Positions 18,484 to 60,853 of a DNA stretch of 64,000 nucleotides are shown here, piece by piece. Where the stretch lies: contig NZ_JOMJ01000003.1 in assembly GCF_000711295.1 (NCBI RefSeq), forward strand, positions 2,119,501 to 2,183,500. The letters run 5' to 3'. A model generated the notes under the pieces. The model saw nothing but the letters and a program-made list of their open reading frames with translations, had not been told where the DNA came from and did no database searches. A program made the position numbers and the translations under genes. Positions within the stretch are counted from its first letter, which is position 1. Every line of letters starts with the position of its first letter. This DNA is from Desulfohalovibrio reitneri. Lineage in GTDB: Bacteria > Desulfobacterota > Desulfovibrionia > Desulfovibrionales > Desulfovibrionaceae.

Positions 18484-19835
18484 ATGGCAGCCCAGCGCCG
18501 CCGCCTGACCATCCTCGGCCTCGACGGCCTCTCCCTGCCCCTGGCCCGCCGCTTGGCGGAACTCCACCGCCTGCCCGCCGTGGCCAGCTTGGCCACCGCC
18601 CCCTCCGCCCGCACCGTCCCCTCGGAACTGCCCGAGCTCTCGCCCGTCAACTGGACCGCCCTGGCCACGGCCAGCGGGCCGGAAACCCACGGCGTGTACG
18701 GCTTCACCCGCCTGGACCCCACGGACTTCTCCCTCTCCCTGACCGACTTCTCCCACGTCCAGGCCCCCACCGTCTTCGACCGCCTGGGCGAGGCCGGGCT
18801 CACCTCCCGGGTGGTCAACCTGCCCAACACCTACCCGGCCCGGCCCATCCCCGGCATGCTGGTTTCCGGCTTCGTGGCCCCGAACCTGCACCGCGCCTGC
18901 CACCCGCCCATGCTGGCCGCCATGCTGGAACAGCGCGGCTACCTGCTGGAAGCCGACACCACCCGGGGCGCGGCCGAGCCGGACCACCTGCTGGCCCAGC
19001 TCCGCCAGACCATCGCCTCCCGCCGCTCCGCGCTGGACCTGCTCTGGGACGACCTGGACTGGGACTGTTTCTGCCTCGTCCTCACGGAAACCGACCGCCT
19101 TTTCCATTTCCTCCTCCCGGCCGCCCTGGACCCGGACAACCACCTCTTCGCCCCCATCACCGCCGTGCTGCGCCAATGGGACGAACTTGTGGGCGAGGTC
19201 CTCGAACGCCACCACGACCTGCCCGAACCCAAGCGCTTCATCACCGTGGCCGACCACGGCTTCACCGAGACCATCACCGAGGTGGACCTCAACGCCGTGC
19301 TCCGCGACATGGGCCTTTTGCGCCTGCGCCACGAACCGCGCGACGAGTGGGACACCACCGCCATCGACCCCGCCTCCCGCGCCTTCGCCCTGGACCCCTC
19401 CCGCGTCTACATCCACACCAGCGACCGCTTCCCCCACGGCCCCGTCCCCCGGCCGAGGCCCCCGCCATCGCCCGGGCCGTCAGCGACCGCCTGGCCGCCC
19501 TCCAGCACCACGGCCAGCCCGTCATCCAGCAGGTCCACACCCGCCACGACCTCTACAACGACGCCCCCCGCGCACCGGACCTGGTGGCCACGGCCCACCC
19601 CGGTTACGAGCTCAAGGCCAAGCTCGACCGCGTAGACATATTCTCCCTGCACGGCCGCTTCGGCTGCCACACCCCACACGACGCCATCTTCACCGACACA
19701 GGGCACGGTGAACCGGGAAGAATGCGGGAAGTGGGAGAGCTGGTGCTGGAATGGTTCGGGATTGGTTCGGGAAGTGAAGATTTCGCCCTTGCGGGCGACC
19801 AGGGCCTGCGCGGCCCTGGACCCGCGGCAAAGTAA
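18484..19835 (+). pseudogene. Alkaline-phosphatase superfamily / type I phosphodiesterase-like protein, frameshifted
   Basis: The N-terminal part has AP-superfamily metal-site motifs: TILGLDGLSLPLARRLAEL, the nucleophile region LSPVNWTALATA, LFHFLLP and TVADHGFTETITEV. The frame breaks in the C5 run at 19446-19450. One extra C restores the reading into ...PAEAPAIARAVSDRLAAL and on to VDIFSLHGRFGCHTPHDAIF. The restored frame then reads straight into repeat R1 and uses a TAA inside its third hairpin (19833-19835), so the last 20 or so residues are repeat-derived. Probable role: hydrolysis of a phosphodiester on a glycan or nucleotide. Confidence 0.72.
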
Positions 19836-19843
19836 CTTTGCAT
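19779..19843 (+). repeat. Three-hairpin downstream repeat, copy R1
   Basis: Core copy. Hairpin I is CGCCC/GGGCG, hairpin II is CCAGGGCC/GGCCCTGG with loop TGCGC, hairpin III is GCAAAG/CTTTGC around TAA. It is on the same strand as the phosphodiesterase-like gene and provides that frame's stop codon. The extended tail follows. Confidence 0.9.
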
Positions 19844-20045
19844 TTGTGTTCGCGGGTTGGAGCGCGTCAGTGGGATGTATGGGAGCACTCCGGCGAATCG
19901 GCGATTGTGGAGCGCGTCTGCCGGTACAACCTCGCCCCGGTCGTTTAGCTTCCCATGCGTGGGACGCGGAATTGGGCTACGGTCTCCCGGCTAAACTTTG
20001 CCAGTACCACGCCCCCGAGCGAAGCGAGCGATAGAAAGTTTCCTA
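19844..20045 (+). repeat. Extended tail of repeat R1
   Basis: About 200 bp after the core are shared, with point changes, with 48419-48620 (+) and partly with 60854-60990 (+) and 54110-54264 (-). Shared blocks include TTCGCGGG, GGGAGCACTCCGGCGAA, the GGCCGTTTGGCT-like block, GCGGAATTGGGCT and CGAGCGAAGCGAGCGA. No coding frame is conserved between copies. The 19836-20172 gap holds this tail and the palindrome below. Confidence 0.75.
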
Positions 20046-20073
20046 TGTGGCCCCAGGTCAAGAGGGAGAGGGG

Positions 20074-20125
20074 TTGGGAGAGGGAGGAAAGCCCCCTTTT
20101 TAAAGGGTTTTTTTCCCTCTCCCAA
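20074..20125. repeat. 52-nt imperfect palindrome associated with the extended repeat
   Basis: The left arm starts TTGGGAGAGGGAGGAAA and the right arm ends TTTTTCCCTCTCCCAA, with a small internal mismatch zone. The same 52-nt element occurs in near-perfect form at 48639-48690. Here it sits between convergent genes and could act as a bidirectional terminator. Confidence 0.7.
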
Positions 20126-20172
20126 TGCCCTGAACGCTCACCCTCGCCAGCCACCCTCCATTCTCTTGCTCC

Positions 20173-21776: not shown

Positions 21777-21887
21777 GCGGAAGAGGGATGAAGGGTAGTG
21801 GAATGTGAGTATTATCCTGCCCCCGGTCGCGGATTCGCCGAAGCGCTCCCTTCCCTCGCACTCACGCGCGTTAACCCGCGAACACAC

Positions 21888-21954
21888 ATGCAAAGTTAGT
21901 TTGCCGCAGGGTCCAGGGGGCGCGTAGCCCCCTGGTCGCCCGAAGGGCGAAATC
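21888..21954 (-). repeat. Three-hairpin downstream repeat, copy R2
   Basis: On the - strand it begins about 10 bp after the stop codon of the epimerase at 21965. Hairpin II is CCAGGGGGC/GCCCCCTGG with loop TACGC. Hairpin III has one mismatch (GCAAAC/CTTTGC). Confidence 0.9.
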
Positions 21955-21964
21955 TTCCCAGCCT

Positions 21965-22957
21965 TTACGTATTGCCCCCAGCGAACCAGGCCACGGTGCG
22001 GCGCACCGCCCCGGGCAAGTCGGTGCGGGCTTGCCAGCCGAGCATGCGCCGGGCCTTGGAGGTGTCGGCGTAGTTGCGCATGACGTCGCCCTGCCGCTTT
22101 TCGCCGTGGCGCACGGTGAAGCCGGTTATGCCGGCGCGTTCAAGCTCCGGCACCAGGACGTCCATCAATTCCAGGATGGAGGTTTCCCGGGCAGTGGCGA
22201 TCTGGAAGACTTCACCGCCCACCCCGGGGGCGTAGGCCGCCCGCAGGATGGCCTCGATGAGGTCGTCCACGTACACGAAATCCCGCGTCTGGGTGCCGTC
22301 GCCGAAAATCTCCAGCTCCTCCCCGGCCATGGCCTTGCGGATGAACTTGGCCACCACGCTGGACTTGCGGCCGGACAGCGGCCCCAGCACGTTGGAGAAG
22401 CGCAGGGCCACGGTCTCCACCCCGAAGGTGTTGTAATAGGCCGAGCAGTAGCCCTCCCCCGCCAGCTTGGAGGCCCCGTAGGGCGAGACCGGCCGTGGCG
22501 GGATGTCCTCGCGGATGGGCGGCTCCACCTCCCCGGCGGGCGCGCCGGAGGAGGCGAAGACGAAGCGAGGCACGCCGCCCGCCCGCGCCGCCTCCAGATA
22601 GTTGAGGGTGCCGATGACGTTGGCCCGGCAGTCCATGCGGGGGTTCTCCACCGACGGGGCCACGCCGGTGTTGGCCGCCAGATGGACAACAACCTCCATG
22701 CCCTCGGCGGCGCGCACGGCCAGGTCCTCGTCCAGGATGTCGCCGGGGACGAGCTCCACCTTGCCCGGGCGTGGCTGGCCCGGCTCAGCCGCCTCCACGA
22801 AGTCGCAGGCCAGGGCCAGGTCCTCGCGGGTGCCCACGCTGAGGTTGTCCACCACGCGGATGAAGGGCTCCCCCTCGGCCAGCAGGCGGCGGATGAGGTT
22901 GCGGCCGATGAAGCCGCAGCCCCCGGTGATGAGCCAGTTGGCGCGCTCTAGGACCAT
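21965..22957 (-). CDS. NAD-dependent sugar epimerase/dehydratase
   Basis: A 330-residue extended short-chain dehydrogenase/reductase. Motifs are WLITGGCGFIGRNLIRRLL, VVHLAANTGVAPSVENP, FASSGAPAGE, and SPYGASKLAGEGYC with the YxxxK pair. The segment RDFVYVDDLIEAI is typical of UDP-glucose 4-epimerase-like enzymes. The start is the ATG at 22957; the upstream open frame is a shadow of the next gene. It overlaps the UDP-sulfoquinovose synthase gene by 10 bp, so the three genes from 25213 down to 21965 form one operon. Substrate not determined. Confidence 0.82.
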   Translation of the reverse strand: MVLERANWLITGGCGFIGRNLIRRLLAEGEPFIRVVDNLSVGTREDLALACDFVEAAEPGQPRPGKVELVPGDILDEDLAVRAAEGMEVVVHLAANTGVAPSVENPRMDCRANVIGTLNYLEAARAGGVPRFVFASSGAPAGEVEPPIREDIPPRPVSPYGASKLAGEGYCSAYYNTFGVETVALRFSNVLGPLSGRKSSVVAKFIRKAMAGEELEIFGDGTQTRDFVYVDDLIEAILRAAYAPGVGGEVFQIATARETSILELMDVLVPELERAGITGFTVRHGEKRQGDVMRNYADTSKARRMLGWQARTDLPGAVRRTVAWFAGGNT

Positions 22958-25213: not shown

Positions 25214-25498
25214 GGTTCTCCCCGCGGTCCGTTCGTGTTCCGGTACCATTGCCGTGGAACAATCCGCTGTCTCGCCGAACGGATACACGCTCCCGTAGAC
25301 CCTGGCAAACCAGCGCTAAGTGCGCTCCGGCAAGCCAGGCGGGATGGGGTGGGTGGTGTCGGTTTGGGCAAAAGAAAGGAGAAATAAACAGTTTTTGTTA
25401 TGCGGGAAATGCGTCAAGCGGTTTTGGAGCCAAGCCATGCCGATCCGCCGGAGCGCTCCCTTCCCTCGCACCTGACTCCCGCCATCCCGCGAATTCAC
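25214..25498. other. Intergenic region upstream of the 24098-25213 operon
   Basis: No credible gene. The part nearest 25213 should hold the promoter of the - strand sugar operon, but I see no clear -35/-10 pair. From about 25450 the sequence matches the tail side of repeat R3 (GGAGCGCTCCC, then CATCCCGCGAA). Confidence 0.5.
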
Positions 25499-25598
25499 AT
25501 GCAAAGTTACTTTGCCGCAGGGTCCAGGGGGTGCGTAGCCCCCTGGTCGCTGAAGGCGAAATGTCTTTCTGGTCCTGGGCGCCCGAAGGGCGGAATCT
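25499..25598 (-). repeat. Three-hairpin downstream repeat, copy R3, with an extra partial unit
   Basis: The core lies at 25499-25562 on the - strand. A second partial unit at about 25571-25598 repeats the first hairpin and starts within a few bases of the nuclease stop codon. Hairpin III is perfect here (GCAAAGT/ACTTTGC). Confidence 0.85.
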
Positions 25599-25601
25599 TC
25601 C

Positions 25602-26125: not shown

Positions 26126-27460
26126 TCAGTACTCCACATCCAGGTCGATGCCCAGCCGCTCCCACTGTTCCGCGGCTTCCGCTTCGGCCTTCTCGAGTTC
26201 CTTGCCTTCCAGGGGCTCGATGACCAGGGCCTCGGCCACCACCTGCCAGATGTACTTCACCTCGTAGTCGCAGCCTTCGTAGTATTTGGGCAGCCGCTTC
26301 ATGATCTGGTCGCGGCAGTTGGAGCAGCCAACGACCACCACGTCCGCGCCGCTGCGCTTGATCTGCTCCACCTTGAAGCGGCCGTGGTAGGCGGCCTGCT
26401 CCTCGAAGGGCATGGGCCACATGCCGCCGCCCGCGCCGCAGCAGAAGTTGGCCATGCGGTTTGGCACCAGGTCAACGTACTCGTCCACGCACTGCGAGAG
26501 AATCCAGCGCGGCTCCTCGAAGAAGGCCTGACCGTAGTGGCGCATGAGTTCCCGGCCGTGCTTGCAGGAGTCGTGAAAGGTGAAGCGTTTGCCCGCGTGG
26601 ACGCTCTTGTCCAGCGTGATGCGCCCCTGCTCGATGATCTCCTTGAGGTACTCGTAGAGGTAGATGAATTCCACTTCCGAGGTCTCCGGGCTCTCCTGAA
26701 GGCAGTACTTCAGCCCGGTGCGGCAGCCGTAGGAGCCGCCCCCGCAGTCGGGCATGATCATGCGCTTGATGCCGTGCTGGCGCATGTAGTCGATCTTGCG
26801 GCGGGCCAGCTTGCGGGTGCCCTCGTAGTTGCCGGTGAACAAGGCCCAGTCCACAGCCTCCCAGCCGGTGGAGGGAACGGTCCAGTTCTCCCGGGCGGCG
26901 TAGAAGATCTTCCACCACCAGTACTGGTCCTCAAAGTCGCCGTAGACTTCCTTGGAGTTGGGGAAGAAAAGGATTTCCGCCCCGTCCTTGTCCACGGGCA
27001 CGTAGAAGCCGGGGCACTCCTCCTCGGCCATTTCGGCGCCCAGCTCGGCCATGCCCTGCAGGTAGTCCTCCAGGGGGATGCCGAGGTTGTTGCCGGTGTC
27101 CAGGTTCTGCTGCGCCCCCTTGTGCAGGGTGCCGGGCACCTTGTCGCGGTCGCGCAGGTGCTTGAGGTGCAGCATGAGCGGGGCGATGTCCACGCCCGCC
27201 GGGCAGTTCTGGGTGCAGCGGCCGCAGCCGGTGCACAGCCAGACGTAGTTGGAGTCCACCACTTCCTGGAGCATGCCCAGGGAAAGCATGCGCAGCACCT
27301 TGCGGGTGTTCCAGTCCTCGTATCCCGGGGCGCAGGAGGTGGGGCAGCCGCTCACGCAGCTGCCGCAGGTCATGCAGGCGCTGAGGTCGAACTTGTCCAG
27401 GTACTCGCGCACTTCCCCCGGCAGTTCCCGGGGGTGGATGATCTCGGCGGCTTCGGTCAT
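26126..27460 (-). CDS. HdrD-like Fe-S oxidoreductase
   Basis: A 444-residue protein. Two 4Fe-4S motifs near the N-terminus (CMTCGSCVSGCP, then CTGCGRCTQNCP) are followed by cysteine-rich CCG-type motifs: DCGGGSYGCRTG, FHDSCKHGREL, FCCGAGGGMW and VVGCSNCRDQ. This combines features of HdrC and HdrB, as in HdrD-like subunits that bind a non-cubane cluster and reduce disulfides or pass electrons. It is the last gene of the redox operon, separated from Usp by 55 bp. The physiological acceptor is unknown. Confidence 0.83.
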   Translation of the reverse strand: MTEAAEIIHPRELPGEVREYLDKFDLSACMTCGSCVSGCPTSCAPGYEDWNTRKVLRMLSLGMLQEVVDSNYVWLCTGCGRCTQNCPAGVDIAPLMLHLKHLRDRDKVPGTLHKGAQQNLDTGNNLGIPLEDYLQGMAELGAEMAEEECPGFYVPVDKDGAEILFFPNSKEVYGDFEDQYWWWKIFYAARENWTVPSTGWEAVDWALFTGNYEGTRKLARRKIDYMRQHGIKRMIMPDCGGGSYGCRTGLKYCLQESPETSEVEFIYLYEYLKEIIEQGRITLDKSVHAGKRFTFHDSCKHGRELMRHYGQAFFEEPRWILSQCVDEYVDLVPNRMANFCCGAGGGMWPMPFEEQAAYHGRFKVEQIKRSGADVVVVGCSNCRDQIMKRLPKYYEGCDYEVKYIWQVVAEALVIEPLEGKELEKAEAEAAEQWERLGIDLDVEY

Positions 27461-27515
27461 GTCTGCCTCCGGCGCGGAGCGCGGCTCCCAGCGCCGCGCT
27501 CCGCTCGGGTGGGGC

Positions 27516-28451
27516 TCAGGCCTGGGTTTCGGCCTGGGCCGTGGTTTCGGCGACCGCGCCGGTCTGGTCGTACATCAGGCCGCAGCGCAGGTCGAAGTGC
27601 TTGTTCACGCTCATGGTGGGGCAGGCGGAGTTGAGGGCCACCTGGATGACGGTGGAGCCCAGAAGCGCCTTCTCGGGGTCCACCTCCTTGGAGTGGTGGG
27701 CCATGATGACAAGCCCGGCCTTGTTGATGCGGGCGGCCTTGAGGATTTCCGTTGAGGGCTTGCCCTCGGTGCACTCGTAGTCCACCTTCTCGATGCCCTT
27801 CAGCCGCTCGGCGAATTCCTCGCGCATGCGGTCGCGGTTCTCCTGGATGATGGCGTCCATCTGCTCCTGGGGCGCGCCGGACTCCTGCACGTGGAGGATG
27901 ATGAGGCGGGACTTGTAGTGGCGGGCCATCTGGCCGCCGTAGTTCACGGCGCACTCCGCGGGCTTGGAGAAGTCGGTGCAGACCAGGATGGTGTCGAAGC
28001 TGCACTCCGGCTTGCCCACCTCGGAGGTGACGACCATCACCGGGCAGGGCGCCCGCTGGCTGACCCGCTCAAGGGTGGACCCGGCCATGCCCCACATCTT
28101 GGAGCGGCGCTCGGTGTACTCCTTGGTGTGCGGGCCCATGACCACCAGATCGGCCTTCTTCTGCCGCACCAGCCGCAGGATCTCGTTGTAGGGGATGCCC
28201 GCCTTGACCAGGATTTCCAGATTGGGCACGCCCTCCAGCTTCTCCTTGTAGTAGGTTTCGATGTTCTCCCGCAGGCGCTGGCATTCGCCGGAGGCCTCCA
28301 GGTGTTCCATGTCGCCCCAGCCGCGCTCGATGCCCGTGACGTAGGTCAGGTAGAGCTTGGAGTCGAAGCGGCGGGCGTAGGCCAGGGCCGCGTCCACGGC
28401 GCACTCGCAGATTTCCGAGGGCGTCACGGCGAGAATGATGTCCTTGAACAT
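27516..28451 (-). CDS. Universal stress protein with two Usp domains
   Basis: A 311-residue tandem Usp protein. Domain 1 (about 1-145) starts FKDIILAVTPSEICECAVDAAL and has the ATP-loop region VVMGPHTKEY then GMAGSTLERV. Domain 2 (about 150-295) has FDTILVCTDFSKPAECAVNYG, VIMAHHSKEV and LLGSTVIQVAL. Such proteins bind ATP or AMP and affect stress survival. Its place between HdrB and an HdrD-like gene suggests a link to the state of this electron-transfer complex (inference). Confidence 0.88.
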   Translation of the reverse strand: MFKDIILAVTPSEICECAVDAALAYARRFDSKLYLTYVTGIERGWGDMEHLEASGECQRLRENIETYYKEKLEGVPNLEILVKAGIPYNEILRLVRQKKADLVVMGPHTKEYTERRSKMWGMAGSTLERVSQRAPCPVMVVTSEVGKPECSFDTILVCTDFSKPAECAVNYGGQMARHYKSRLIILHVQESGAPQEQMDAIIQENRDRMREEFAERLKGIEKVDYECTEGKPSTEILKAARINKAGLVIMAHHSKEVDPEKALLGSTVIQVALNSACPTMSVNKHFDLRCGLMYDQTGAVAETTAQAETQA

Positions 28452-28467
28452 GGCGTACCTCCCTGGG

Positions 28468-29370
28468 TTACGCGTTGACCACGGGTTCGTCTTTCTGCGC
28501 GGGTTCCGGCAGACGGCCGGCGGCCAAGCCGGGCTCCGCGCGCATGTTCTTGTCCAGCAGCAGCCGCCTGGGCGCCAAGTCCAGGGCCAGCCCCATGAGC
28601 TGGGGCAGGTAGAGGATGCTCAGGGGCTTCTCCCGGCCCGCCAGGGCGGACCGGCGGGCGGATTCCAGGTTCATCTGGCACAGGGGGCAGACCGTGACCA
28701 CCACGTCCGCGTCCCCAGCCTGGGCCAGTATCTCATCCACCCGGTCCAGGGCCGCCTGACGGTGCGTGACCAAAAGGGACGCGCCGCAGCAGCGGTTGCC
28801 GGCACCCCAGGGGACCACCTCTCCGCCCATGGCCTCCACAAGCGGCTCCATGGACACGGGGTGCTCGGGATCGTCGAACACGGCGTAGGGGCGCAGGGCC
28901 TGGCAGCCGTAGTAGGGGGCCACGCGCAGGCCGTTGAGGGATCGCTTGACGCGGCCGGTAAAGGCCTCCAGCAGGTCGGAGGAGAGCACGTCCAGCAGGT
29001 GTCGCACCCGCACCTCCCCTGACAGTTCCAGCCCTTCTCCGGCCAGGCCGCTGTTAATGCGGTCCAGCATGGCGTGATCGTGGCGGGTCTTTTCGGCCAC
29101 CCGCCGCAGGTTCAGGTAGCAGGCGGAGCAGGGCACCAGGACATCCCAGCCGGGCTCGTCGCGGGCGGCCAGGGCCAGGTTGCGGGCGGGCAGCAGCAGC
29201 CCCATGCTCTCGGAGACCGCGTCCGCGGCCGAGGCCCCGCAGCAGGTCCAGTCCGGGATGTCCTTGAGTTCGGCCCCCAGCACCTCCAGCACGGCCCGGG
29301 TGGAGGCGTCGTACTCCACCGCGCTCTCCTTGAGGGAACAGCCGGGGTAGTAAGCGTAGGTCATGGTCAT
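28468..29370 (-). CDS. hdrB: Heterodisulfide reductase subunit B-like
   Basis: About 300 residues with the two CCG motifs that bind the non-cubane 4Fe-4S cluster: CCGASAADAVSESMG with PCSACYLNLRR, and APYYGCQALRP with NRCCGASLLVTHR and CPLCQMNLE. It opens YAYYPGCSLKESAVEYD, as in HdrB. The first ATG (29370) overlaps the HdrC stop; a second ATG at 29364 has better spacing (8 bp) to the AGGAG box and may be the true start. It should carry the disulfide-reducing site of the complex. Confidence 0.87.
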   Translation of the reverse strand: MTMTYAYYPGCSLKESAVEYDASTRAVLEVLGAELKDIPDWTCCGASAADAVSESMGLLLPARNLALAARDEPGWDVLVPCSACYLNLRRVAEKTRHDHAMLDRINSGLAGEGLELSGEVRVRHLLDVLSSDLLEAFTGRVKRSLNGLRVAPYYGCQALRPYAVFDDPEHPVSMEPLVEAMGGEVVPWGAGNRCCGASLLVTHRQAALDRVDEILAQAGDADVVVTVCPLCQMNLESARRSALAGREKPLSILYLPQLMGLALDLAPRRLLLDKNMRAEPGLAAGRLPEPAQKDEPVVNA

Positions 29371-29900
29371 GACTCCTTCTCCTCTTGGGCGGCGAAGAGG
29401 GTGTCGAGCCTCCCCCGCCGCGCCGTGGACGGGGGATGGAGCTTGCCCTTGGCCAGCATCTTCAGCCCCATGGGCAGGTAGCTCAGTCCCAGGGCCGGGG
29501 AGCGGCGGGCCAGCAGGTAGCGGGTCATGAGGGCGCTCTCCTGCACCCGGCCGTAGCCCCGCACGTTGTCCATGAAGGCGCGGTAGAAGGCGGAGGACTC
29601 CTTGGCGCGGGGGGCGTTGGCCGCCTGGGCGGCGCGCTTGAGCGCGGCGATGGTATCGGTGAGGGGCAGGCCGCGCGGGCAGCGCAGGGTGCAGGCGTAG
29701 CAGGCGGAACACAGCCAAAAGGTGCGGGAGGCGAACAGCTCGTCCCACAGTCCCAGCTGCACCAGCCGCCACATGCGGCGCGGGGTGATGTCCATGTCCG
29801 GCGCGTTGACGCAGGAGGCGGAGCAGGTGCCGCACTGCATGCAGGCGGCCATGGTCTCCCGGATCAGGGCCAGGGGGTCGGTGCGGGCCGCGGTGTTCAT
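29367..29900 (-). CDS. hdrC: Heterodisulfide reductase subunit C-like
   Basis: A 177-residue protein with two 4Fe-4S sites (CMQCGTCSASC, then CSACYACTLRCP). It should carry electrons between the HdrA-type flavoprotein and HdrB. The ATG at 29900 overlaps the stop of the double HdrA, and its own stop overlaps HdrB, so the A-C-B genes are coupled. The C-terminal third is basic and not conserved enough to assign. Confidence 0.86.
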   Translation of the reverse strand: MNTAARTDPLALIRETMAACMQCGTCSASCVNAPDMDITPRRMWRLVQLGLWDELFASRTFWLCSACYACTLRCPRGLPLTDTIAALKRAAQAANAPRAKESSAFYRAFMDNVRGYGRVQESALMTRYLLARRSPALGLSYLPMGLKMLAKGKLHPPSTARRGRLDTLFAAQEEKES

Positions 29901-32900
29901 TTGCAGGTCTCCCCTCGGCCCTGGGCCAGGGCCGCGTCGATGGTTCCCATGACCTGGCGGTCGGTGAAGCCGCGCACGAAGCTGGCGCTGTTGGGGCAGA
30001 CGGCGGCGCAGGAGCCGCAGCCCTGGCAGAGCAGGTCGTCCACCACAACCGTGCCGCTTCGCATGTCCAGACGCCGGGCACCGTAGGGGCAGACCTCGAT
30101 ACAGCGGCCGCAGCGGGAGCAGAGGCTGTGGCGCACCCGCGCGGTGACGCGGGAGCCGGCCAGCCGGGTCTCGGAGAGGATGCGCAGGGCGCGCTGGGCG
30201 GCCGCCTTGGCCGAGGCCACGGTGTCGCGCAGCCCGCCCGGGGCGCGGGCCACTCCGCAGTAGAAGACCCCTTGCTTGAGGCTGTCCACAGGCCGCCATT
30301 TGCTCTCGGCCTCGCGGAAGAAGCCGTCCTGGTCCAATTCCACCCCGAACACCTCGGCGGTCTCCTCGGCCTCGCCCGCCTCCAGGCCGATGGACAGCAC
30401 CAGCAGGTCCGGGTCCATGGCCACGGGGGCGGCCAGGATGGGGTCGGTGTAGGTCAGCCTGGGGCGGCCGTCCTCGAACTCCACCCGGGGCTTGTCGTCC
30501 TGGGTGTAGGGCACGAAGAGCACTCCGGCCTCACGGGCGCGGGTGTAGTACTCCTCCATGAAGCCGGGGGTCATGATGTCACGGTAGAGAACGACCACGG
30601 GCAGGTCGGGCCGCCGCTTCTTGAGCAGCAGGGCGTTCTTCAGGGCCTGCGGGCAGCAGACGCGGCTGCAGTAGTTGCGGTTCTCGTCGCGGGAGCGCCA
30701 GCACTGGATCATGGCCACGCCGGAGAGCCCCGCGAGATCCAGTTCGCCCGAGGCCAGCACCTCCTCCAGGCGGCGCTGGGTCATGACCTTCTTGTGCACG
30801 TCCAGCCCGAAGTCGTGCACCTTCACCTCCCGTCCTCCGGTGGCCAGGATGGTTGCGCCGTGCTCCAGGGGGTAGGTGCCATCGGGGGTGGAGATGAGAC
30901 TCATGAAGTGTCCGGCCCGGCCCGTGGACAGGGCCACCCGCGCCTCAAGGAAAACCCGGATGCGGGGGTGCTTCTCCACCTGTTCAACCAGGTTCTCCAC
31001 GAAGCGCACCGGGTCGTCGCCGGTGAGGGTGGTGTGCAGCTTGTTGGCCAGCCCGCCCAGCCGCTCGGCCTCTTCCACCAGGCAGACGTTGTAGCCGTGG
31101 TCGGCCACGCCCAGGGCGGCGGTCATGCCAGCCACCCCGCCGCCCACCACCAGCGCCTCGCGGGAGACCTCCACCACCGGCTCCACCGGCTCGGGGTCCT
31201 GGTCCAAGAGCCGCACGGCGGCCATGGTCAGGCCGGAGGCCAGCCTGTCGGCCATGGCGGCGGGGTCGCGGGGTTCATCGCTCCCAGCGGCCATGAGCGG
31301 GGAGTAGACGTCAACCACGTCCATGAGGGCGGGGTTGAGATCGGTCTTTTCCGACAACTCGCGCAGCTTGGGCACGTAGGCGTAGGGCATGCACGCGCCG
31401 ATGAGCAGCCGGTTGGGCTTGTGCTCGTCCATCAACTCGGTGATGCGCTCCCAGCCCTCGGCGGTGCAACAGCGGGGCACGGACTCCACCGAGGCCACGC
31501 CGTGTACGGTTCCCAGCCGCTCCGCCAGGCGTCCCATGTCGGCCTCCTCCTCCAGCAGGGGGCAGGCGGTGCACAGGGCGGCCAGCACGCGCGGCCGCTC
31601 GCGGCGCACGTCGCGGTACTCGGGACGTGGTTCGGGCTTGCGCTCCTTGAGGGGGGCGTAGATGTTGATCAGCCGCGAGGCCTCCAGGGCGGCCGCGCCG
31701 GAGAGGATCATGGACTCGGAGATGTCCGCGGGCCAGGCGAAGCTGCCCGCGGCCATGACGCCCATGCGCGAGGTGCGAGAGGGGGTCAGGTTGGCGGTCT
31801 GGCAGAAGCCCCATTCGTTGGTCTCGATGCCGGTCACGCGGGCCAGCTCCTCCATGCCTCTGGGCGGCCGCGCGCCCACGGCCAGCACGGCCATGTCGAA
31901 GCTCTCGGTGACGAGCTTGCCGGTCTCGTCCACGTACTGCATGCGCACCTGGCCGGGGTCGTCCATGGAGGGCAGCAGGGTGTGGATGCGGGCGCGCACG
32001 AAGCGCACGCCGTCGCGATCCCGGGCCTGGTCGCAGTAGCGCTGGAAGTCCTTCCCGTGGGTGCGCACGTCCATGTAGAAGACGGTGGCTTCGGGTTCCT
32101 CCAGGCCAAGCTCCCGCGCCCGTTTCCTGACCAGCCGCGCCTCCTTGAGGGAGGCCAGGCAGCAGAAGGAGGAGCAGAAGCCGCCCTGCCGCTGCACGTC
32201 GCGCGAGCCCACGCACTGCAACCAGGCGATGCGCTTCACCGGGCGGCCGTCGCGGGGGCGGGGCAGGCCGCCGTGGCCGTCGCCGCGCCGCCCGGCGTCC
32301 AGGCCGGTGCCGCTCAGCCAGCGTTCCATCTCCATGGAGGTCAGCACCGCGGGGTGCTGGCCGTAGAGGTAGAAGTCGCCCAGGGCGGCCGGGTCTGTGG
32401 CGGGGTCGAAGAGCTGGAAGCCAGCGGCCAGGATGACCGAGGCCACGTCGATGTCCACCAGCTCGTCGCTGACCAGCCGCATGAACCGCTTTTCCAGGTC
32501 CGGCACCAGCTTGGCCGGGTCTTCGGGGACGACCATGACCTCGGCCGCGCCCTTGTCCAGCATCTCCTTGGCGGCTTCGCCGTTCGCAGTGGCCGCGTCC
32601 GGGGCCAGGAGGACGACAGGGGTGGCCGGAGCCAGCTCCAAGGCCCGGCCGATGATGCGCTCGGCGTCGCCCCTGGGCAGGTCCAGGGAGGCCAGAACCA
32701 GCCCCGCGCCGCCGGACTCCAGGGCGGCCACCGCCTCTTCGGCGTTCGCGGCCGAATGCACCGGGAACTCCCGCTTGCGCAGTCCCGCGGCCAGGGGTTC
32801 GGCCGCTTCGGGGTCGGGGTGGGCCAGCAGCACGGGAAATTCCGCCCGTTTTTCCAGTTGGAAGTCCACCGCGCCGGTGGGGCAGGCTTCGACGCACTCC

Positions 32901-33403: not shown

Positions 33404-33413
33404 CTGGGCCTCC

Positions 33414-34565: not shown

Positions 34566-34581
34566 ATCGGGCTCCTTGCGC

Positions 34582-35058: not shown

Positions 35059-35060
35059 GG

Positions 35061-37112: not shown

Positions 37113-37114
37113 GG

Positions 37115-45412: not shown

Positions 45413-45480
45413 GATTTCGCCCTTCGGGCGACCAGGGGGCTGCGCGCCCCCTGGACCCTGCGGCAAAGTAACTTTGCATG
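45413..45480 (+). repeat. Three-hairpin downstream repeat, copy R4
   Basis: Hairpins: CGCCC/GGGCG, CCAGGGGGC/GCCCCCTGG with loop TGCGC, and GCAAAGT/ACTTTGC. Tail similarity runs to about 45545. It is the only core copy with no gene ending just before it: on its left lies the start of the divergent tetR. Confidence 0.9.
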
Positions 45481-45690
45481 TGTGTTCGCGGGATGGCGCG
45501 GGGCTGGGTGCGGAAGGGGAGTACCCCGGCGGATTGGCGGCTGGGGGAGTGGGGGAGTATTTCTGAGTATGCCTGGTCGCGGTCCAGGGATGGCAGGGTG
45601 ATTTTGACTGCCCGGCCAATCCGTCCCCAGCCGTGCCATCCAGCAAAGGCAGAGCTACCAAGTAAATTTGGATTTTGCAGAACTAAGTGC

Positions 45691-46804: not shown

Positions 46805-46855
46805 TCATGTGGCTTGGCCCTGATGGAAAGGGTCAAGCCAAATAAGGACCCGCGG

Positions 46856-47395: not shown

Positions 47396-47410
47396 GTCGA
47401 AAGCGGGTAT

Positions 47411-47452
47411 GATTTCGCCCTTCGGGCGACCAGGGGCTGCGCACCCCGGTCC
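47411..47452 (+). repeat. Three-hairpin downstream repeat, copy R5 (truncated)
   Basis: Starts 16 bp after the stop of the membrane gene. Hairpin I is intact, hairpin II is degenerate and hairpin III is missing. The sequence then changes to AT-rich DNA. Confidence 0.75.
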
Positions 47453-47521
47453 GGTTTGAAACAGCCTTGATCTAAGTGGAAGTCGCGAATTTAAGATTTG
47501 ACCGATAAACTGAATAAAGAC

Positions 47522-48235: not shown

Positions 48236-48332
48236 CTACGCGTTCCTTTATTTCATTGTCTCCTGGGTGATCCTCCTCATCCGCGCCACCATCCTCTTTC
48301 GCCAACGCAGGGCCGCTGGGTACGCTTTCTGA
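48222..48332 (+). pseudogene. 3' fragment of the second membrane-protein copy
   Basis: Reads YLATIYAFLYFIVSWVILLIR, then ATILFRQRRAAGYAF and stop, closely matching the end of the intact gene (CTVSWIILLARAIILF, then RRRRAAGFPM). The middle of the gene was lost with the right side of the IS. Repeat R6 follows 16 bp after the stop, as R5 follows the intact copy, so gene and repeat were probably duplicated together. Confidence 0.8.
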
Positions 48333-48348
48333 GCCACGAGTGAATGAA

Positions 48349-48418
48349 GATTTCGCCCTTCGGGCGACCAGGGGGCTGCGCGCCCCCTGGACCCTGCGGC
48401 AAAGTAACTTTGCATGTG
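48349..48418 (+). repeat. Three-hairpin downstream repeat, copy R6
   Basis: Full core following the pseudogene stop. Hairpin II is CCAGGGGGC/GCCCCCTGG and hairpin III GCAAAGT/ACTTTGC. It is nearly identical to R4. Confidence 0.9.
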
Positions 48419-48620
48419 TATTCGCGGGATGGTGCGTGGTGGGATCGCGGAAAGGGAGCACTTCGGCGAACCCGCGATTGCCGGGCTATTTCCAGCCGGT
48501 AAATATCCTTGCCCGGCCGTTTGGCTAGCGATGCGCTGAACGCCAGATTGGGCTGTGGTCCCTGCGGCAACCATACGTCAGTACCCCGCCCCCGAGCGGA
48601 GCGAGCGACAGGGAGTTTTG
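48419..48620 (+). repeat. Extended tail of repeat R6
   Basis: Matches the R1 tail at 19844-20045 block by block, including the CCCCGAGCGGAGCGAGCGACA segment near its end. No coding content. Together with the palindrome below it fills most of the gap before the MFS gene. Confidence 0.75.
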
Positions 48621-48638: not shown

Positions 48639-48690
48639 TTGGGAGAGGGAGGAAAAACCCTTTCCAAAGGGTTTTTCCTCCCTCTCCCAA
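48639..48690. repeat. 52-nt perfect palindrome (25-bp arms, 2-nt centre)
   Basis: The left arm 48639-48663 and right arm 48666-48690 are exact complements around CC. The left arm begins TTGGGAGAGGGAGGAAAAA. The same element, less perfect, is at 20074-20125. The outer half is purine/pyrimidine-rich and the inner half T/A-rich, so transcripts of either strand end a GC stem with a U-rich side. Confidence 0.9.
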
Positions 48691-48790: not shown

Positions 48791-49939
48791 ATGCGTGAAT
48801 CGCGGAAGATGTACCTGTTTTTGTTTGCCCTCACCGTGGCCACGTTCGCGGGTTTTCAGGGCTGGCGGACGCTGTTGAACAACTTCGCGGTGGAGCGCGC
48901 GGGCATCAGCGGGCTGGAGATGGGCGTCATCCAGTCGGTGCGCGAGGTGCCGGGTTTTCTGGCGCTGCTGGTGGTGTATCTGCTGCTCATCGTGCGGGAG
49001 CACCGCCTGGCCGCGTTGTCCGTGCTCTTGCTGGGGCTGGGCGTGGGGCTGACCGGGCTGTTCCCCAGCTACGGCGGCTTGATGCTGACCACCCTGCTGA
49101 TGTCCTTCGGCTTCCATTATTTCGAGACCTGCAACCAGTCGCTGACCCTGCAATACTTCGATAAGGGCACCGCGCCGCTGGTGTTCGGGCGGCTGCGGGC
49201 GGTGGGCTCGGCCACCAACATCGCCGTGGGCGGGCTGGTCTGGCTGGCCTCCACGCATTTGGAGTACGTCTCCATGTACGCCGTGCTGGGCGGGTTCGCG
49301 GTGGTTGTGGCCCTGGGCTGCCTGCTGGCCGACCCCACGCGGGTGGACCTGCCCGCCCAGTCCAAGAAGATGGTCCTCAAGCGCACCTACTGGCTGTTTT
49401 ACGTCCTCACCTTTTTGGGTGGGGCCAGGCGGCAGATCTTCGTGGCCTTCGCGGTCTACCTGCTGGTCAGCAAGTTCGAGTTCTCCATCCAGGAAGTGGC
49501 CGCGCTCTTCATCGTCAACAACGTCATCGGCTGGTTCGCCAACCCCTACATCGGCAAGGCCGTCAACCGCTTCGGCGAGCGAAAGGTGCTCAGCCTGGAG
49601 TACGTTTCCCTGTTGGCGGTCTTCGTGGTCTACGCCTTTTCCGAGAGCAAGTGGCTGGTGGCGTCCATGTACGTTGTGGACCACCTGGTCTTCAATTTCG
49701 CCATGGCCATCCGCACCTTCTTCCAGAAAATCGCCGCGCCCGAGGACATCGCCCCCTCCATGGCCGTGGGCTTCACCATCAACCACATTGCCGCCGTGGC
49801 CATCCCCGCCCTGGGCGGCATCGTCTGGGCCACCGTCTCCCCTGCGGCGGTCTTCACCGCCGGAGTCGGCCTGGCAGTCGCCTCCCTGGTATTCGTCCAG
49901 CTCATCGACCGCGAAGTGCGGTTGAAGGGTGAAGAGTAG
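48791..49939 (+). CDS. MFS transporter
   Basis: A 382-residue membrane protein with about 11-12 helices. It opens with LFALTVATFAGFQGWRTLLNNFAVERAG and has IQSVREVPGFLALLVVYLLL and an EHRLAALSVLLLGLGV loop. Later segments GGARRQIFVAFAVYLLV and GERKVLSLEYVSLLAVF fit the second half of an MFS protein. The substrate is unknown. The last residues are charged and the stop is followed 23 bp later by repeat R7. Confidence 0.8.
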   Translation: MRESRKMYLFLFALTVATFAGFQGWRTLLNNFAVERAGISGLEMGVIQSVREVPGFLALLVVYLLLIVREHRLAALSVLLLGLGVGLTGLFPSYGGLMLTTLLMSFGFHYFETCNQSLTLQYFDKGTAPLVFGRLRAVGSATNIAVGGLVWLASTHLEYVSMYAVLGGFAVVVALGCLLADPTRVDLPAQSKKMVLKRTYWLFYVLTFLGGARRQIFVAFAVYLLVSKFEFSIQEVAALFIVNNVIGWFANPYIGKAVNRFGERKVLSLEYVSLLAVFVVYAFSESKWLVASMYVVDHLVFNFAMAIRTFFQKIAAPEDIAPSMAVGFTINHIAAVAIPALGGIVWATVSPAAVFTAGVGLAVASLVFVQLIDREVRLKGEE

Positions 49940-50220: not shown

Positions 50221-50913
50221 ATGAAAGTTGTTAAGGGAATCGCTCTGTTGGCCATTGTTCTGCTGTTCGCCGCGCAGGCCGCTGCGGAAAGCCGCGTGCC
50301 CGTGTATCTCAGCGGCAAGCTGGGCGCGTCCTTCATGACGGCCGACGGCATCAAGAACACCACGGATGGCTCGAACCTGGATGTGCACAAGTCGGAAGAG
50401 GACGACACCCTCTTTGTCGGCGGCGCGGCCGTGGGCTACGACTTCGGGAAAACCACCGAGGTCCCCGTTCGTCTGGAGATGGAGTACATGTACCGCTCCG
50501 ACTTCAGCTTCGACGCCGAACCCGCGTTCGTCGGGGCTGGTATCCCCAACAAGGGCAGCCTGGATATGAGCGTGCAGACCCTGCTCTTCAACGCCTACGT
50601 GGACATCCCCACCGGCACCGCCTTCACCCCCTACGTCGGCGGCGGCATCGGCTGGGCCTTCCTCAACTCCGAAGGCACCATCACCGACCTGTCCACCGGC
50701 GATTCCGCCAGCCACGACAATGACGAGACCAACGCCGCCTGGAACATCGGCGGGGGCGTAGCTTACGAAATCAACACCAACTGGACCGCCGACCTGGGCT
50801 ACCGATACCTCGACGTCGGCGACATGGAATGGGGCGAGTCCGAGTTCGTCTCCGTCAAGCCCGACGACATCACCACCCACGAAGTGGTGCTGGGCATCCG
50901 CTACACCTTCTAG
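50221..50913 (+). CDS. Outer-membrane beta-barrel protein
   Basis: A 230-residue protein with signal peptide MKVVKGIALLAIVLLFAAQAAA. The mature part has alternating strands such as VPVYLSGKLGASFM, VRLEMEYMYRSDFSF and TPYVGGGIGWAFLNSEGT. It ends in the C-terminal barrel signature HEVVLGIRYTF, with Phe last, which is recognised by the Bam complex. The size suggests eight strands, as in OmpW/OmpX/OmpA-like barrels. The function may be structural or a small pore. A strong terminator follows. Confidence 0.85.
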   Translation: MKVVKGIALLAIVLLFAAQAAAESRVPVYLSGKLGASFMTADGIKNTTDGSNLDVHKSEEDDTLFVGGAAVGYDFGKTTEVPVRLEMEYMYRSDFSFDAEPAFVGAGIPNKGSLDMSVQTLLFNAYVDIPTGTAFTPYVGGGIGWAFLNSEGTITDLSTGDSASHDNDETNAAWNIGGGVAYEINTNWTADLGYRYLDVGDMEWGESEFVSVKPDDITTHEVVLGIRYTF

Positions 50914-51024: not shown

Positions 51025-51092
51025 GCATTTCGCCCTGGTGGGCAACCAGGGCCTGCGCGGCCCTGGACCCGCGGCGGGATTGTCCCGCATGT
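51025..51092 (+). repeat. Three-hairpin downstream repeat, copy R8
   Basis: Hairpin II is CCAGGGCC/GGCCCTGG. Hairpin III is GCGGGA/TCCCGC around TTG, a third compensated form. A degenerate partial copy (TTCGCTTTCGGTGGCCAGGGG) lies just before it, at 50990-51010. Confidence 0.88.
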
Positions 51093-51268
51093 GCAGCGCG
51101 TGTGGGGGCGAGTCAGGCGACGGAAAGAGAGCGGACCGCGAAGTTGCGCTACCCAGGTGCCATTCGCCGGTTCAACCTTGCCCTGGTTTCTTGTTCACAA
51201 ACGCGCTGAGAACGAAGCTGGGTTGCCGCCCCAACTATCCCCGACCATAGGCATTTCGGGAGAGGAAA

Positions 51269-51334
51269 GATTTCGCCTTTGGCGACCAGGGGCTGCGCGC
51301 CCCCTGGACCCTGCGGCAGGATAATCCTGCACGT
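51269..51334 (+). repeat. Three-hairpin downstream repeat, copy R9
   Basis: Hairpin I is shortened on both sides (CGCC/GGCG). Hairpin II is CCAGGGGC/GCCCCCTGG with one bulge. Hairpin III is GCAGGA/TCCTGC. Its tail runs to about 51400 and is similar to the R7 tail. Confidence 0.9.
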
Positions 51335-51606
51335 GTATCGCGTGTTGGGGAGTGAGTCGCGGGGAGAACAGGGAGCACCCCGGCGAATGGGCGGCGGGGT
51401 GGTGAATCCAGCCGGTGAGGCGGAAGCGTGGTTGTCTGGCGGAAGGGTGGCGTGCTTTGAACGAGCTGAAGCAGAGGAATGAATTGGTTGCGGGGTGGCG
51501 TGGTGGGCGCTGGATCAGCGGCGGCAAGTGGCTTGCAGGAACGCAAAGCGGGCTCCAGGCCAGGCAAATGCCGAACCCGCGGGGTCTCTGAACGCCGCGC
51601 AGGACC
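51335..51606. other. Non-coding tail of R9 and unassigned sequence
   Basis: The first 70 bp are repeat tail. I see no gene, RNA or strong terminator in the rest; short open frames here have no family features. Confidence 0.5.
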
Positions 51607-53940: not shown

Positions 53941-53992
53941 TCGCCGGAGCACTCCCGCCCATCTTCCTGACGCGCGCCAACCCGCGAATACA

Positions 53993-54059
53993 CATGCAAA
54001 GATGGTTTGCCGCCGGGTCCAGGGGGCGCGTAGCCCCTGGCCGCCCTGAGGGCGAAATC
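53993..54059 (-). repeat. Three-hairpin downstream repeat, copy R10
   Basis: On the - strand. Hairpin I is CGCCC/GGGCG with loop TCA. Hairpin II is CCAGGGGC/GCCCCCTGG with loop TACGC. Hairpin III is degraded to 5 bp. It lies in tandem behind R11. Confidence 0.85.
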
Positions 54060-54109: not shown

Positions 54110-54264
54110 CGTGTCGTAGCCAGGAGGCAACAGCCCAATCCCGCGTCCCACGCATGGCCAGCCAGACGGCGGTGATTGGTTTTACCGGGTAAACGCGTTC
54201 CGCAAATCGCAAGTTCGCCGGGTTACTCCCGTCCGTTCCCTGGCGCGCTCCATCCCGCGTCACA
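54110..54264 (-). repeat. Extended tail of repeat R11
   Basis: Read on the - strand after R11, it shows GACGCGGGATGG, CGGGAGTAACCCGGCGAA, GTCTGGCTGGCCATGCG, and GGGACGCGGGATTGGGCT, the same block order as the tails of R1 and R6. The CGAGCGAAGCGAGCGA block and the large palindrome are missing here. Confidence 0.7.
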
Positions 54265-54366
54265 CATGCAAAGTTAGTTTGCCGCCGGGTCCAGGGGGCG
54301 CGCAGCCCCTGGTCGCCGAAGGCGAAATCTTTTCCCTCGCAGGCCCTGGTCGCCAGAAGGGCGAAA
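54265..54366 (-). repeat. Three-hairpin downstream repeat, copy R11, with an extra partial unit
   Basis: The core is 54265-54329 on the - strand. Hairpin I is the shortened CGCC/GGCG form. A partial unit at 54340-54366 repeats the first hairpin and the start of the second. It lies about 40 bp after the photolyase stop. Confidence 0.85.
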
Positions 54367-58924: not shown

Positions 58925-58972
58925 GACGATGAGCGATACGAACCGCGCCATACCCCTCCCAGGAGGGTCCCG

Positions 58973-60787
58973 GTGAGCCCCCTGGGACGGCATATCCGGC
59001 TGTGGCGCGAATTCCTGCGCTCCTACCGCCAGATCAGCTCCGTGCGCTGGCTGGTGCTGGGCATCGGCGTGGGCGTGGCCTCCGGCCTGGGAGCCGTCCT
59101 CTTCTACCTCGGGGTGGAGCACGGCAAGCACTTCATCCTCACCACCCTGGCGGGCTTCGAACTCCCCGCCCCGGCGGGCGAACGCCTGGTCCACGGCGGC
59201 CACACCGGCGATTTCCGGCCCTGGATCGTGCCCGTGGCCCTGTGCGCCATCGGCCTGCTCACCGGCTGGCTGGTGCAGCGCTTCATCCCCGAGACCAAGG
59301 ACGCGGGCACCGACGGCACCGACGCCATGATCAACTCCTTCCACAACCAGGAAGGACGCATCAGGCCGCGGACACCCATCATCAAGGGGCTCATGGCCAT
59401 CCTCACCATTTCCGGCGGCGGCTCCGCCGGGCAGGAAGGACCCATCTCCCAGATTGGCGCGGGGGTGGGCTCGTTCCTGGCCACCCGACTGGGCCTGTCC
59501 GTGCGCGAACGCCGCATCATGCTCCTGGCCGGTGCGGCGGGCGGCCTGGGCGCCATCTTCCGCGCCCCCCTGGGCGGCGCCCTCACCGCCATCGAGGTCA
59601 TCTACACCGAGGACTTCGAGGCCGAGGCCATCCTGCCCTCGGTTCTCTCCTCCGTGGTGGCCTACACCATCTTCACCCTCTTCTACGGCACCGAACCCAT
59701 CTTCGGCATCCCCTCGTTCCAGTTCGAAAACCCCCTGGAACTGCCGTTCTACGCCATTCTGGCCGTGGCCACCTCGGCCGTGGGCTGGTTCTACGTGCGC
59801 GCCTTCTACTTCATCAAATTCAGCATCTTCCACCGCGTGCGCGCCAAGGTCGGCCTCATGTGGACCGCCGGACTCGGCGGCCTGTGCATGGGCGCCTTCG
59901 GCGTCTTCTTCCCCCACGTCCTCACCGGCGGCTACGGCTGGCTGGAAATGGCCATCTTCGGCCAGCTCCCCCTCATGCTCATGCTGGCCATCATCCTGGG
60001 CAAGACCGTGGCCACCTCCATGACCATCGGCTCCGGCATGTCCGGCGGCATGTTCGCCCCCGCCCTCTTCGTGGGCGGCATGACAGGCGGAATGGTGGGC
60101 AAGCTGGCCCATATCCGCTACCCCCACATCGTCGGCGAACCCGGGGCCTACGTCCTGGTGGGCATGGCCGCCTTCTTCGCGGGCGTGGCCAACGCCCCCA
60201 TCGGGCCGCTGATCATGGTCACGGAGATTACCCAGGGCTACGGCCTGCTCGCGCCCCTCATGCTCGCCTCCGCCCTGGCCCTGGTGCTCTGCCGCCGCAC
60301 CTCCCTCTACGAACACCAGGTGGAAAACAAGTTCGAGTCGCCGGCGCACGTCAACGACGCCACCATCAACATCCTCGAGGAACTCCAGGTCAAGGACTTC
60401 TACAAGAAAGGGCGCGTCACCGTTCTGGAAGAGTCCATGAACCTCAAGGTCCTCACCCACATCATCGCTAACACCAACGAACTCTTCTTCCCCGTGCGCG
60501 GCGACGACGACCGTATCTCCGGCATCCTCACCCTCCAGGACGTGCGCAAAGTCCTCTACGAGGACGCCCTCTTCGAGCTCATCGTCGCCCGCGACCTCAT
60601 GCGCAAGCCCGCCTTCCTCTACCCCAATGACGACCTCTACACCGCCCTGCTGCAATTCGTGGACACCGACTACGGACAAATCCCCGTCATCGACCCCGAC
60701 GACGCCACCGACGTCCTCGGCATCATCAACCGCCACGACGTCTTCCAGGCCTACTCCCAGACTATAAGAAGGTTGAAGGAAGAATAA
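58973..60787 (+). CDS. ClC-family chloride channel or H+/Cl- antiporter with CBS domains
   Basis: A 604-residue membrane protein. The selectivity motifs are visible: GGGSAGQEGPISQIGAG with the gating Glu, and GSGMSGGMFAPALFVGG. About 10-12 hydrophobic segments cover residues 20-440. Residues about 460-600 form a CBS pair (LQVKDFYKKGRVTVLEESM, ILTLQDVRKVLY, VIDPDDATDVLGIINRHDV), which may bind nucleotides. The GTG start at 58973 has AGGAGG 6 bp upstream. Repeat R12 starts directly at the stop codon. Confidence 0.9.
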   Translation: MSPLGRHIRLWREFLRSYRQISSVRWLVLGIGVGVASGLGAVLFYLGVEHGKHFILTTLAGFELPAPAGERLVHGGHTGDFRPWIVPVALCAIGLLTGWLVQRFIPETKDAGTDGTDAMINSFHNQEGRIRPRTPIIKGLMAILTISGGGSAGQEGPISQIGAGVGSFLATRLGLSVRERRIMLLAGAAGGLGAIFRAPLGGALTAIEVIYTEDFEAEAILPSVLSSVVAYTIFTLFYGTEPIFGIPSFQFENPLELPFYAILAVATSAVGWFYVRAFYFIKFSIFHRVRAKVGLMWTAGLGGLCMGAFGVFFPHVLTGGYGWLEMAIFGQLPLMLMLAIILGKTVATSMTIGSGMSGGMFAPALFVGGMTGGMVGKLAHIRYPHIVGEPGAYVLVGMAAFFAGVANAPIGPLIMVTEITQGYGLLAPLMLASALALVLCRRTSLYEHQVENKFESPAHVNDATINILEELQVKDFYKKGRVTVLEESMNLKVLTHIIANTNELFFPVRGDDDRISGILTLQDVRKVLYEDALFELIVARDLMRKPAFLYPNDDLYTALLQFVDTDYGQIPVIDPDDATDVLGIINRHDVFQAYSQTIRRLKEE

Positions 60788-60853
60788 GATTTCGCCCTGG
60801 CGGGCGACCAGGGCCTGCGCGGCCCTGGACCCGCGGCAAAGTAACTTTGCATG
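60788..60853 (+). repeat. Three-hairpin downstream repeat, copy R12
   Basis: Begins at the base after the ClC stop codon. Hairpin I CGCCC/GGGCG, hairpin II CCAGGGCC/GGCCCTGG, hairpin III GCAAAGT/ACTTTGC. Confidence 0.9.

What the first reader, a model, noticed from the sequence alone, without database searches (positions are those of the whole stretch)
19779..60853. A dispersed three-hairpin element placed behind stop codons, with compensatory stem changes
Twelve copies (R1-R12) share a core of about 65-70 bp that folds into three hairpins in a row. Seen directly: hairpin II is CCAGGGCC/GGCCCTGG in some copies and CCAGGGGGC/GCCCCCTGG in others. Hairpin III is GCAAAG/CTTTGC, GCAGGA/TCCTGC or GCGGGA/TCCCGC. 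Hairpin I is CGCCC/GGGCG or CGCC/GGCG. Both sides change together, which means pairing is selected, not the bases. Eleven copies lie downstream of a gene, pseudogene or another copy in the same orientation, often within 0-25 bp of the stop; R4 is the exception. There is no U-tract, so these are not ordinary terminators. They could be mRNA 3'-end stabilisers, rho or processing signals, or a non-autonomous element that targets gene ends.
Basis: partly seen in the sequence, partly recalled or inferred. Interest (0 to 1): 0.78.

Follow-up and report, generated by a model that had tools for sequence, protein, structure and literature searches.

The report
Hairpin repeat behind bacterial stop codons
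A repeated DNA element of about 390 bases, built from RNA-type hairpins, sits just behind genes about 110 times in this Desulfovibrionaceae-type bacterium, and both of its ends match hairpin units that related genera also place behind stop codons; it looks like an undescribed gene-end signal that has multiplied here as a repeat.

Summary
In detail: 12 copies in the window and at least 111 in the genome, with compensated stem changes.

Copies prefer gene 3' ends: 71 of 93 sites follow a same-strand gene, and convergent gaps outnumber divergent ones 43 to 7. Orientation in the informative tandem gaps is only 28:15.

The 90-base core as a unit was found only in this genome. Its parts are wider. 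Hairpins I and II recur in 40 of 348 genomes, 12 genera, behind stops, with compensated inner stems that the search left free. The tail is the reverse complement of another gene-end unit, found in 14 genera including this one. So the element is two inward-facing gene-end units, REPIN-like in layout. No RAYT-type (Y1) transposase was detected; a recent IS3-family element inserts beside it. Copies concentrate away from dnaA.

Best reading: an mRNA 3'-end structure, exonuclease barrier and/or terminator, amplified here as a REP-like repeat. Function is inferred, not shown.

The parts
19779..19866 (+). R1 core (hairpins I, II, III); full unit runs to about 20160
20074..20125 (+). R1 tail palindrome (right-hand gene-end unit, read on the - strand)
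21865..21954 (-). R2 core, 10 nt behind the stop of 21965-22957 (-)
25476..25563 (-). R3 core, preceded by a 5' fragment of another copy at about 25571-25601
45413..45502 (+). R4 core; the exception, upstream neighbour is a TetR-type gene on the other strand
47411..47451 (+). R5, truncated in hairpin II; IS-end-like sequence TTTGAAACAGCC follows at 47455
48349..48438 (+). R6 core; full unit runs to about 48728
48639..48690 (+). R6 tail palindrome TTGGGAGAGGGAGGAAAAACCCTT/AAGGGTTTTTCCTCCCTCTCCCAA
49963..50048 (+). R7 core, 23 nt behind the stop of 48791-49939
51026..51112 (+). R8 core; an intrinsic terminator lies between the stop of 50221-50913 and this copy
51269..51354 (+). R9 core, tandem behind R8 (243 bases on)
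53971..54059 (-). R10 core, tandem behind R11
54244..54329 (-). R11 core, preceded by a 5' fragment of another copy at about 54336-54366
60788..60875 (+). R12 core directly at the stop of 58973-60787; unit runs to about 61036 without the tail palindrome

Best explanation
It is a REP-like gene-end repeat. A purine-rich leader follows the stop codon (or the native terminator), then hairpin I (GCCTYCGGC type), hairpin II (CCAGG..CCTGG, inner part free to change as long as it pairs), ACCC, and often a third hairpin. In this lineage such a unit and a second, different gene-end unit facing it are joined through a middle region into a ~390-bp compound repeat that multiplied to over 100 gaps. Shown: the anatomy, the conserved pairing, the gene-end placement, homologous end units in other genera, copy number, tandem and partial copies. 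Inferred: the hairpins act in the transcript, blocking 3'-to-5' exonucleases and/or helping RNA polymerase stop, for the gene on either side; and copies spread by an unidentified enzyme or by recombination.
For: At least 111 copies. Covariation in own copies (16 of 26 pairs change on both sides, shuffled 4.3) and, independently, in hairpin II of 12 genera at positions the search left free: 54/57, 37/39, 20/21 paired vs 25.6, 15.6, 9.4 shuffled. 71/93 sites behind a same-strand gene, convergent:divergent 43:7; the same in four other genera, 28/39 and 15:3. Distance to stop bimodal: 38 sites at 0-40 nt, 32 at 49-167 nt, half of the latter with a terminator in between. Tail is the reverse complement of a gene-end unit of other genera.
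Against: No transcript data. In 16 sites a canonical terminator precedes the copy, so there the copy cannot be the main 3' end of that gene. 22 of 93 sites are not behind a same-strand gene. Some other genes have canonical terminators (31% of sampled genes), so the repeat is not indispensable. The enzyme that would copy it is unknown.
Confidence: 0.58

Rival explanations
1. Purely selfish non-autonomous mobile element (MITE- or REPIN-like). The hairpins are recognised as folded single-stranded DNA by a transposase, and gene ends are favoured only because insertions in genes or near promoters are lost.
For: ~390-bp unit with recurrent ends, >100 copies, tandem and partial copies, lineage-specific; convergent over divergent 43:7 is what purifying selection would give; tandem orientation bias is weak (28:15).
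Against: No Y1 transposase or reverse transcriptase detected in a 97%-complete assembly; no clear terminal repeats or target duplications; homologous end units hold the same gene-end position in genera where the compound repeat is absent.
Confidence: 0.25
2. The hairpins are passive palindromes kept complementary by template-switch (quasipalindrome) correction during replication, without selection for pairing; gene-end position reflects tolerance.
For: The tail palindrome shows whole-arm replacements at 88-100% complementarity, as palindrome correction would give.
Against: Does not explain the gene-end position shared by many genera, the constant hairpin I and CCAGG/CCTGG-ACCC frame around changing inner stems, or the loop-to-helix pair 63-97, which lies outside the stems.
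Confidence: 0.12
3. Replication- or nucleoid-related sites: the concentration opposite dnaA would mean a terminus-domain DNA signal.
For: Only 2 of 99 copies on contig C3 lie in its first 1.14 Mb around dnaA; density peaks at 1.6-2.2 Mb; gap lengths are alike in both halves.
Against: The IS3-family copies show the same bias (18 of 19); strand use between 1.14 and 2.17 Mb is 37:42, with no polarity; contig order is unknown; a terminus signal does not explain gene-end placement.
Confidence: 0.04

Closest known systems
REP / BIME / REPIN sequences with RAYT transposases (PMC3116915, PMC2817692)
   Same: Extragenic palindromic repeats in over 100 copies; inverted doublets as the unit that multiplies; targets of IS elements; from general knowledge also mRNA 3'-end stabilisers.
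   Different: No Y1 (RAYT) transposase detected here; much longer unit (~390 bp vs about 100); the two facing units are different sequences; single units form a family-wide gene-end architecture in several hairpins.
Hairpin-cluster terminators (PMC8355165)
   Same: Several short hairpins in a row, most within 20-50 bases of the stop codon, U-tract not required.
   Different: That work proposes a generic, sequence-independent class from folding and RNA-seq slopes; here the hairpins are homologous, repeated and covarying. Desulfovibrio was not among its genomes by text search.
Rho-independent terminators (TransTermHP, PMC1852404)
   Same: GC-rich stem behind the stop codon; tail palindrome contains A5/T5.
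   Different: Core has no U-tract; 16 copies lie beyond a canonical terminator.
MITEs
   Same: Non-coding, many copies, intergenic, lineage-specific.
   Different: No clear terminal inverted repeats, no target duplication established, no parent IS found.
IS elements that target REPs (PMC1525189)
   Same: An IS3-family element here lies within 1.3 kb of a core in 13 of 19 cases and in the tail of several.
   Different: The target is this compound repeat rather than a REP.

Membership tests
REP/REPIN | Extragenic, palindromic, many copies | tested here: met
   111 copies; 93 of 95 clusters lie in gaps
REP/REPIN | Inverted doublet as the replicating unit | tested here: inconclusive
   Two inward-facing gene-end units, shown by homology of the tail's reverse complement with units of other genera; the two are different sequences
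REP/REPIN | Cognate RAYT (Y1_Tnp) transposase in the genome | tested here: not met
   PF01797: 0 matches, control rings in 5 genomes including E. coli; assembly 97% complete
REP/REPIN | Conserved tetranucleotide at the foot of the palindrome (GTAG/GTGG type) | not tested
   Not examined
Intrinsic (rho-independent) terminator | GC-rich hairpin followed by a U-tract | tested here: not met
   0 of 80 same-strand copies have one within the core; tail palindrome has A5/T5 inside a longer stem
MITE | Terminal inverted repeats | tested here: inconclusive
   Only GGGGAA-type similarity between the two ends seen by eye
MITE | Target-site duplication and empty sites | tested here: inconclusive
   No element behind the same gene in 28 loci of other genomes, but gene order differs; duplications not established
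MITE | Parent transposase with matching ends | tested here: inconclusive
   The IS3-family element has unrelated ends TGCCCCC..GGGGGCA; other transposases not compared
Described RNA family (Rfam 15) | Match at the gathering score | tested here: not met
   Only a tRNA in the window
Integron attC array / group II intron | Integron integrase with attC core sites, or intron reverse transcriptase | tested here: inconclusive
   RVT_1: 0 in the genome; integron integrase and attC core sites not searched

The most novel reading that the evidence does not exclude
Desulfovibrionaceae share an undescribed, modular mRNA 3'-end structure (constant hairpin I, freely exchangeable hairpin II, ACCC, often hairpin III) that forms or protects transcript ends without a U-tract, and in this lineage it became a self-multiplying two-sided gene-end cassette, possibly using a contact between the hairpin II loop and helix III.
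Probability: 0.35. Interest if true: 0.78.

Novelty: new variant of a known kind. Interest (0 to 1): 0.6.

Why it matters
A homologous, covarying gene-end module present in at least 12 genera gives many natural variants in which the role of pairing at mRNA 3' ends can be tested directly. It links REP-like repeats to an older gene-end role and suggests how a 3'-end structure can turn into a dispersed repeat. For annotation, it gives a name and an anatomy to many unnamed gap sequences in these genomes.

Tried and rejected
RAYT and reverse-transcriptase mobilisers: none detected. Pattern scans of species genomes for two core motifs: 0 hits, with the own genome possibly left out by the tool; one viral scan: 0. 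Empty-site test behind the gene upstream of the L080 copy: none of the 28 loci of other genomes has the element in the 170 bases after the stop, but lepA does not follow there, so there is no exact empty site. Lack of room does not explain the absence near dnaA: gap lengths are alike in both halves. A first gene finder trained on the longest ORFs picked antisense frames and was replaced. An insertion-into-hairpin-II model for the 5' fragments was considered; behind R11 the remainder of an older copy was not found, so it is not claimed. Literature searches found no description.

Full report
OBSERVATION. The twelve copies are there. A profile from three copies finds all twelve, and a covariance model built from seven of them with a structure drawn by hand finds twelve in the window at E below 1e-6. 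The seven training copies match by construction; the other five were not in the model. No Rfam family matches.

EXTENT. Aligning all copies with flanks shows conservation well past the core. Complete copies carry, in order: purine-rich leader; GATTTCGCC; hairpins I, II, III; a fourth hairpin GGGAGNNCNCCGG; CCGGTAAAACC; GCCCTGGCCGTTTGGC; GCGTTGAACGCGG; CCACGCCCCCGAGCGAAGCGAGCG; a long palindrome; CAATGCCCTGAA; CCCCGCCAGCCATCATCCATTCCCC. In 39 copies with a recognisable right end, length from GATTTC is mostly 318-396 bases, with a second group at 225-276. The tail is found at about 40 places, nearly all next to a core.

COPY NUMBER. 111 matches in the own genome, a lower bound, since 150 of 1,414 first-look candidates were scored. 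They form 95 clusters; 14 of these are same-strand tandem groups, mostly spaced 205-290 bases, once three copies exactly 246 apart.

PAIRING. On 111 own-genome copies (109 distinct), 94.6% of cells pair (shuffled 90.3), 16 of 26 pairs have changes on both sides (shuffled 4.3), covariation score 0.108 vs 0.046, none of 500 shuffles as high, and sliding the partner strand destroys it. That alignment was fitted to the structure and the copies are related, so this alone is not decisive. Hairpin III gives the clearest series: AAAG/CTTT, AAAA/TTTT, AAGA/TCTT, AGGA/TCCT, GGGA/TCCC. Independent support comes from other genera: a pattern that fixes hairpin I and the outer part of hairpin II but leaves the inner 3-16 bases free hits 40 of 348 genomes in 12 genera, with no hit for the reversed control pattern. 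Among 58 distinct inner sequences listed there, the first, second and third free positions pair in 54/57, 37/39 and 20/21 cases, against 25.6, 15.6 and 9.4 when 3' letters are shuffled; 0 of 2000 shuffles reach this. This count does not correct for relatedness within a genus, but 11 of 12 genera, one sequence each, pair at the first position.

A CONTACT OUTSIDE THE THREE HAIRPINS. Mutual information ranks the pair 63-97 second of all: the middle base of the hairpin II loop (CGC or CTC) with the middle base of GCG or GAG in the 5' strand of helix III: GC 75, TA 15. The GAG form breaks the helix III pair 97-138 (20 unpaired cells), so loop II and helix III may compete or switch. The TA form occurs with both the long and the short hairpin I (10 and 5 copies), but the number of independent events was not resolved.

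PLACEMENT. Genes were called with a codon-composition script trained on these stretches, so single calls can be wrong. Of 93 classifiable sites, 43 are convergent, 28 tandem in gene orientation, 15 tandem in the opposite orientation, 7 divergent. Behind a same-strand gene: 71 of 93, p 3e-7. Convergent vs divergent 43:7, p 2e-7, and p 2e-4 against 19:20 in spaced sample stretches. Tandem 28:15, p 0.066. The distance from stop to left end falls into two groups: 38 sites at 0-40 nt with no terminator in between, and 32 at 49-167 nt, half of them with a canonical terminator between stop and copy. So the repeat abuts either the stop codon or the end of the native terminator.

RELATIVES. The 90-base core as a unit is absent from 58 other genomes of the order searched with the model, apart from four matches at E 1e-4 to 5e-4 that show only GC hairpins. 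But hairpins I-II recur: in four other genera 28 of 39 placed copies follow a same-strand gene, median 21 nt from the stop, 15 convergent vs 3 divergent, in the best cases as [purines]-AAGATGCCTCCGGCGGC-CAGGGG..CCCCTGG-ACCC, often with a third hairpin behind. The own left end GAAGATTTCGCCTTCGGCGACCAGGGG is the same arrangement. BLAST of the own tail hits 30 of 199 family genomes in 14 genera (own genome included), up to 84% over 104 bases, E 2e-25. In several of the loci read, the matching palindrome is hairpin II of a gene-end unit read in the other direction, e.g. TAG-AAAGATGCCTCCGGCGGC-TGGGGGAAGGGGAGGAAAAACCCTTT..-ACCCCC. The own repeat is therefore two different gene-end units facing inward around a lineage-specific middle. 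This would explain why copies lying in reverse orientation still bring their right end near a stop codon (median 69 nt).

SURROUNDINGS. An IS3-family element (HTH_Tnp_1 plus rve) has 19 copies, 11 of them with the same top score at 100% identity; 13 lie within 1.3 kb of a core (about 2.6 expected from the chance fraction 0.137), and several sit in the tail at about +300. This resembles IS elements that target REPs (PMC1525189). About ten copies are preceded by a 5' fragment of another copy that ends in hairpin II, and a few have a long insert there.

CHROMOSOMAL DISTRIBUTION. A dnaA gene (479-aa frame) is at C3:476,883. Only 2 of 99 copies on C3 lie in its first 1.14 Mb; the binomial p is about 2e-22 per copy or 1e-15 per merged site, with the boundary chosen after seeing the data. 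Density peaks at 1.6-2.2 Mb, opposite dnaA if the 3.39 Mb is one circle. Gap lengths do not explain it. Contig order is unknown and the IS copies are biased the same way (18 of 19), so this may be a general property of the origin-distal half rather than of the repeat.

MECHANISM. Most likely the hairpins are part of the mRNA 3' end and act as exonuclease barrier and/or pause-and-release site; the tail palindrome with A5/T5 may serve both strands. Amplification is shown by copy number; its enzyme is not known. Function is inferred throughout, since no transcript data were available.

VERDICT. Real, not chance; function plausible but unproven; kind: REP-like gene-end repeat, new variant. Interest 0.6.

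Noticed in passing
G000 C3:1,148,927-2,477,213 and C4:60,938-531,491: All copies but two, and 18 of 19 copies of an IS3-family element, lie in the part of the genome far from dnaA; density peaks roughly opposite dnaA.
   Followed up: partly
L069:2508-3627 and 18 other places in G000: Recently active IS3-family element (OrfA/OrfB, ends TGCCCCC..GGGGGCA) that lies near or in the tail of the repeat in 13 of 19 cases.
   Followed up: yes
A3 columns 63 and 97 (loop of hairpin II, 5' strand of helix III): Strong covariation CGC:GCG to CTC:GAG that breaks the drawn helix III; pseudoknot-like contact or alternative pairing.
   Followed up: partly
L092, L083, L094, L102, window 25571-25601 and 54336-54366: 5' fragments of about 30 bases of the repeat, ending in hairpin II, sit 1-7 nt before complete copies.
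   Followed up: partly
L085, L082, L117, L107: Variant copies with a long hairpin-rich insert in hairpin II (..TTGGCCCTCGCCCTTCGGGCCAA..AAATCGCCCTCCGGGCGATTT..).
   Followed up: no
window 46814-47451 and 48198-48438: Similar gene tails (75% over 75 bases), each followed by a copy (R5, R6), as if gene end and repeat had been duplicated together; a DDE_Tnp_1 transposase fragment at 47726-48235 (-) lies between.
   Followed up: no
G000 C3:1,881,711-1,882,175: Second Bac_DnaA-domain hit in a 976-aa open frame, besides the normal dnaA.
   Followed up: no
window 7787-9688 and 14804-16714: Two similar large ORFs that look like asparagine-synthase-type proteins (CNGE motif); not checked with Pfam.
   Followed up: no
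window 26126-38266: Gene cluster with very large Fe-S/FAD proteins (1168 and 683 aa), an FrhB/FdhB-type protein and a universal stress protein.
   Followed up: no
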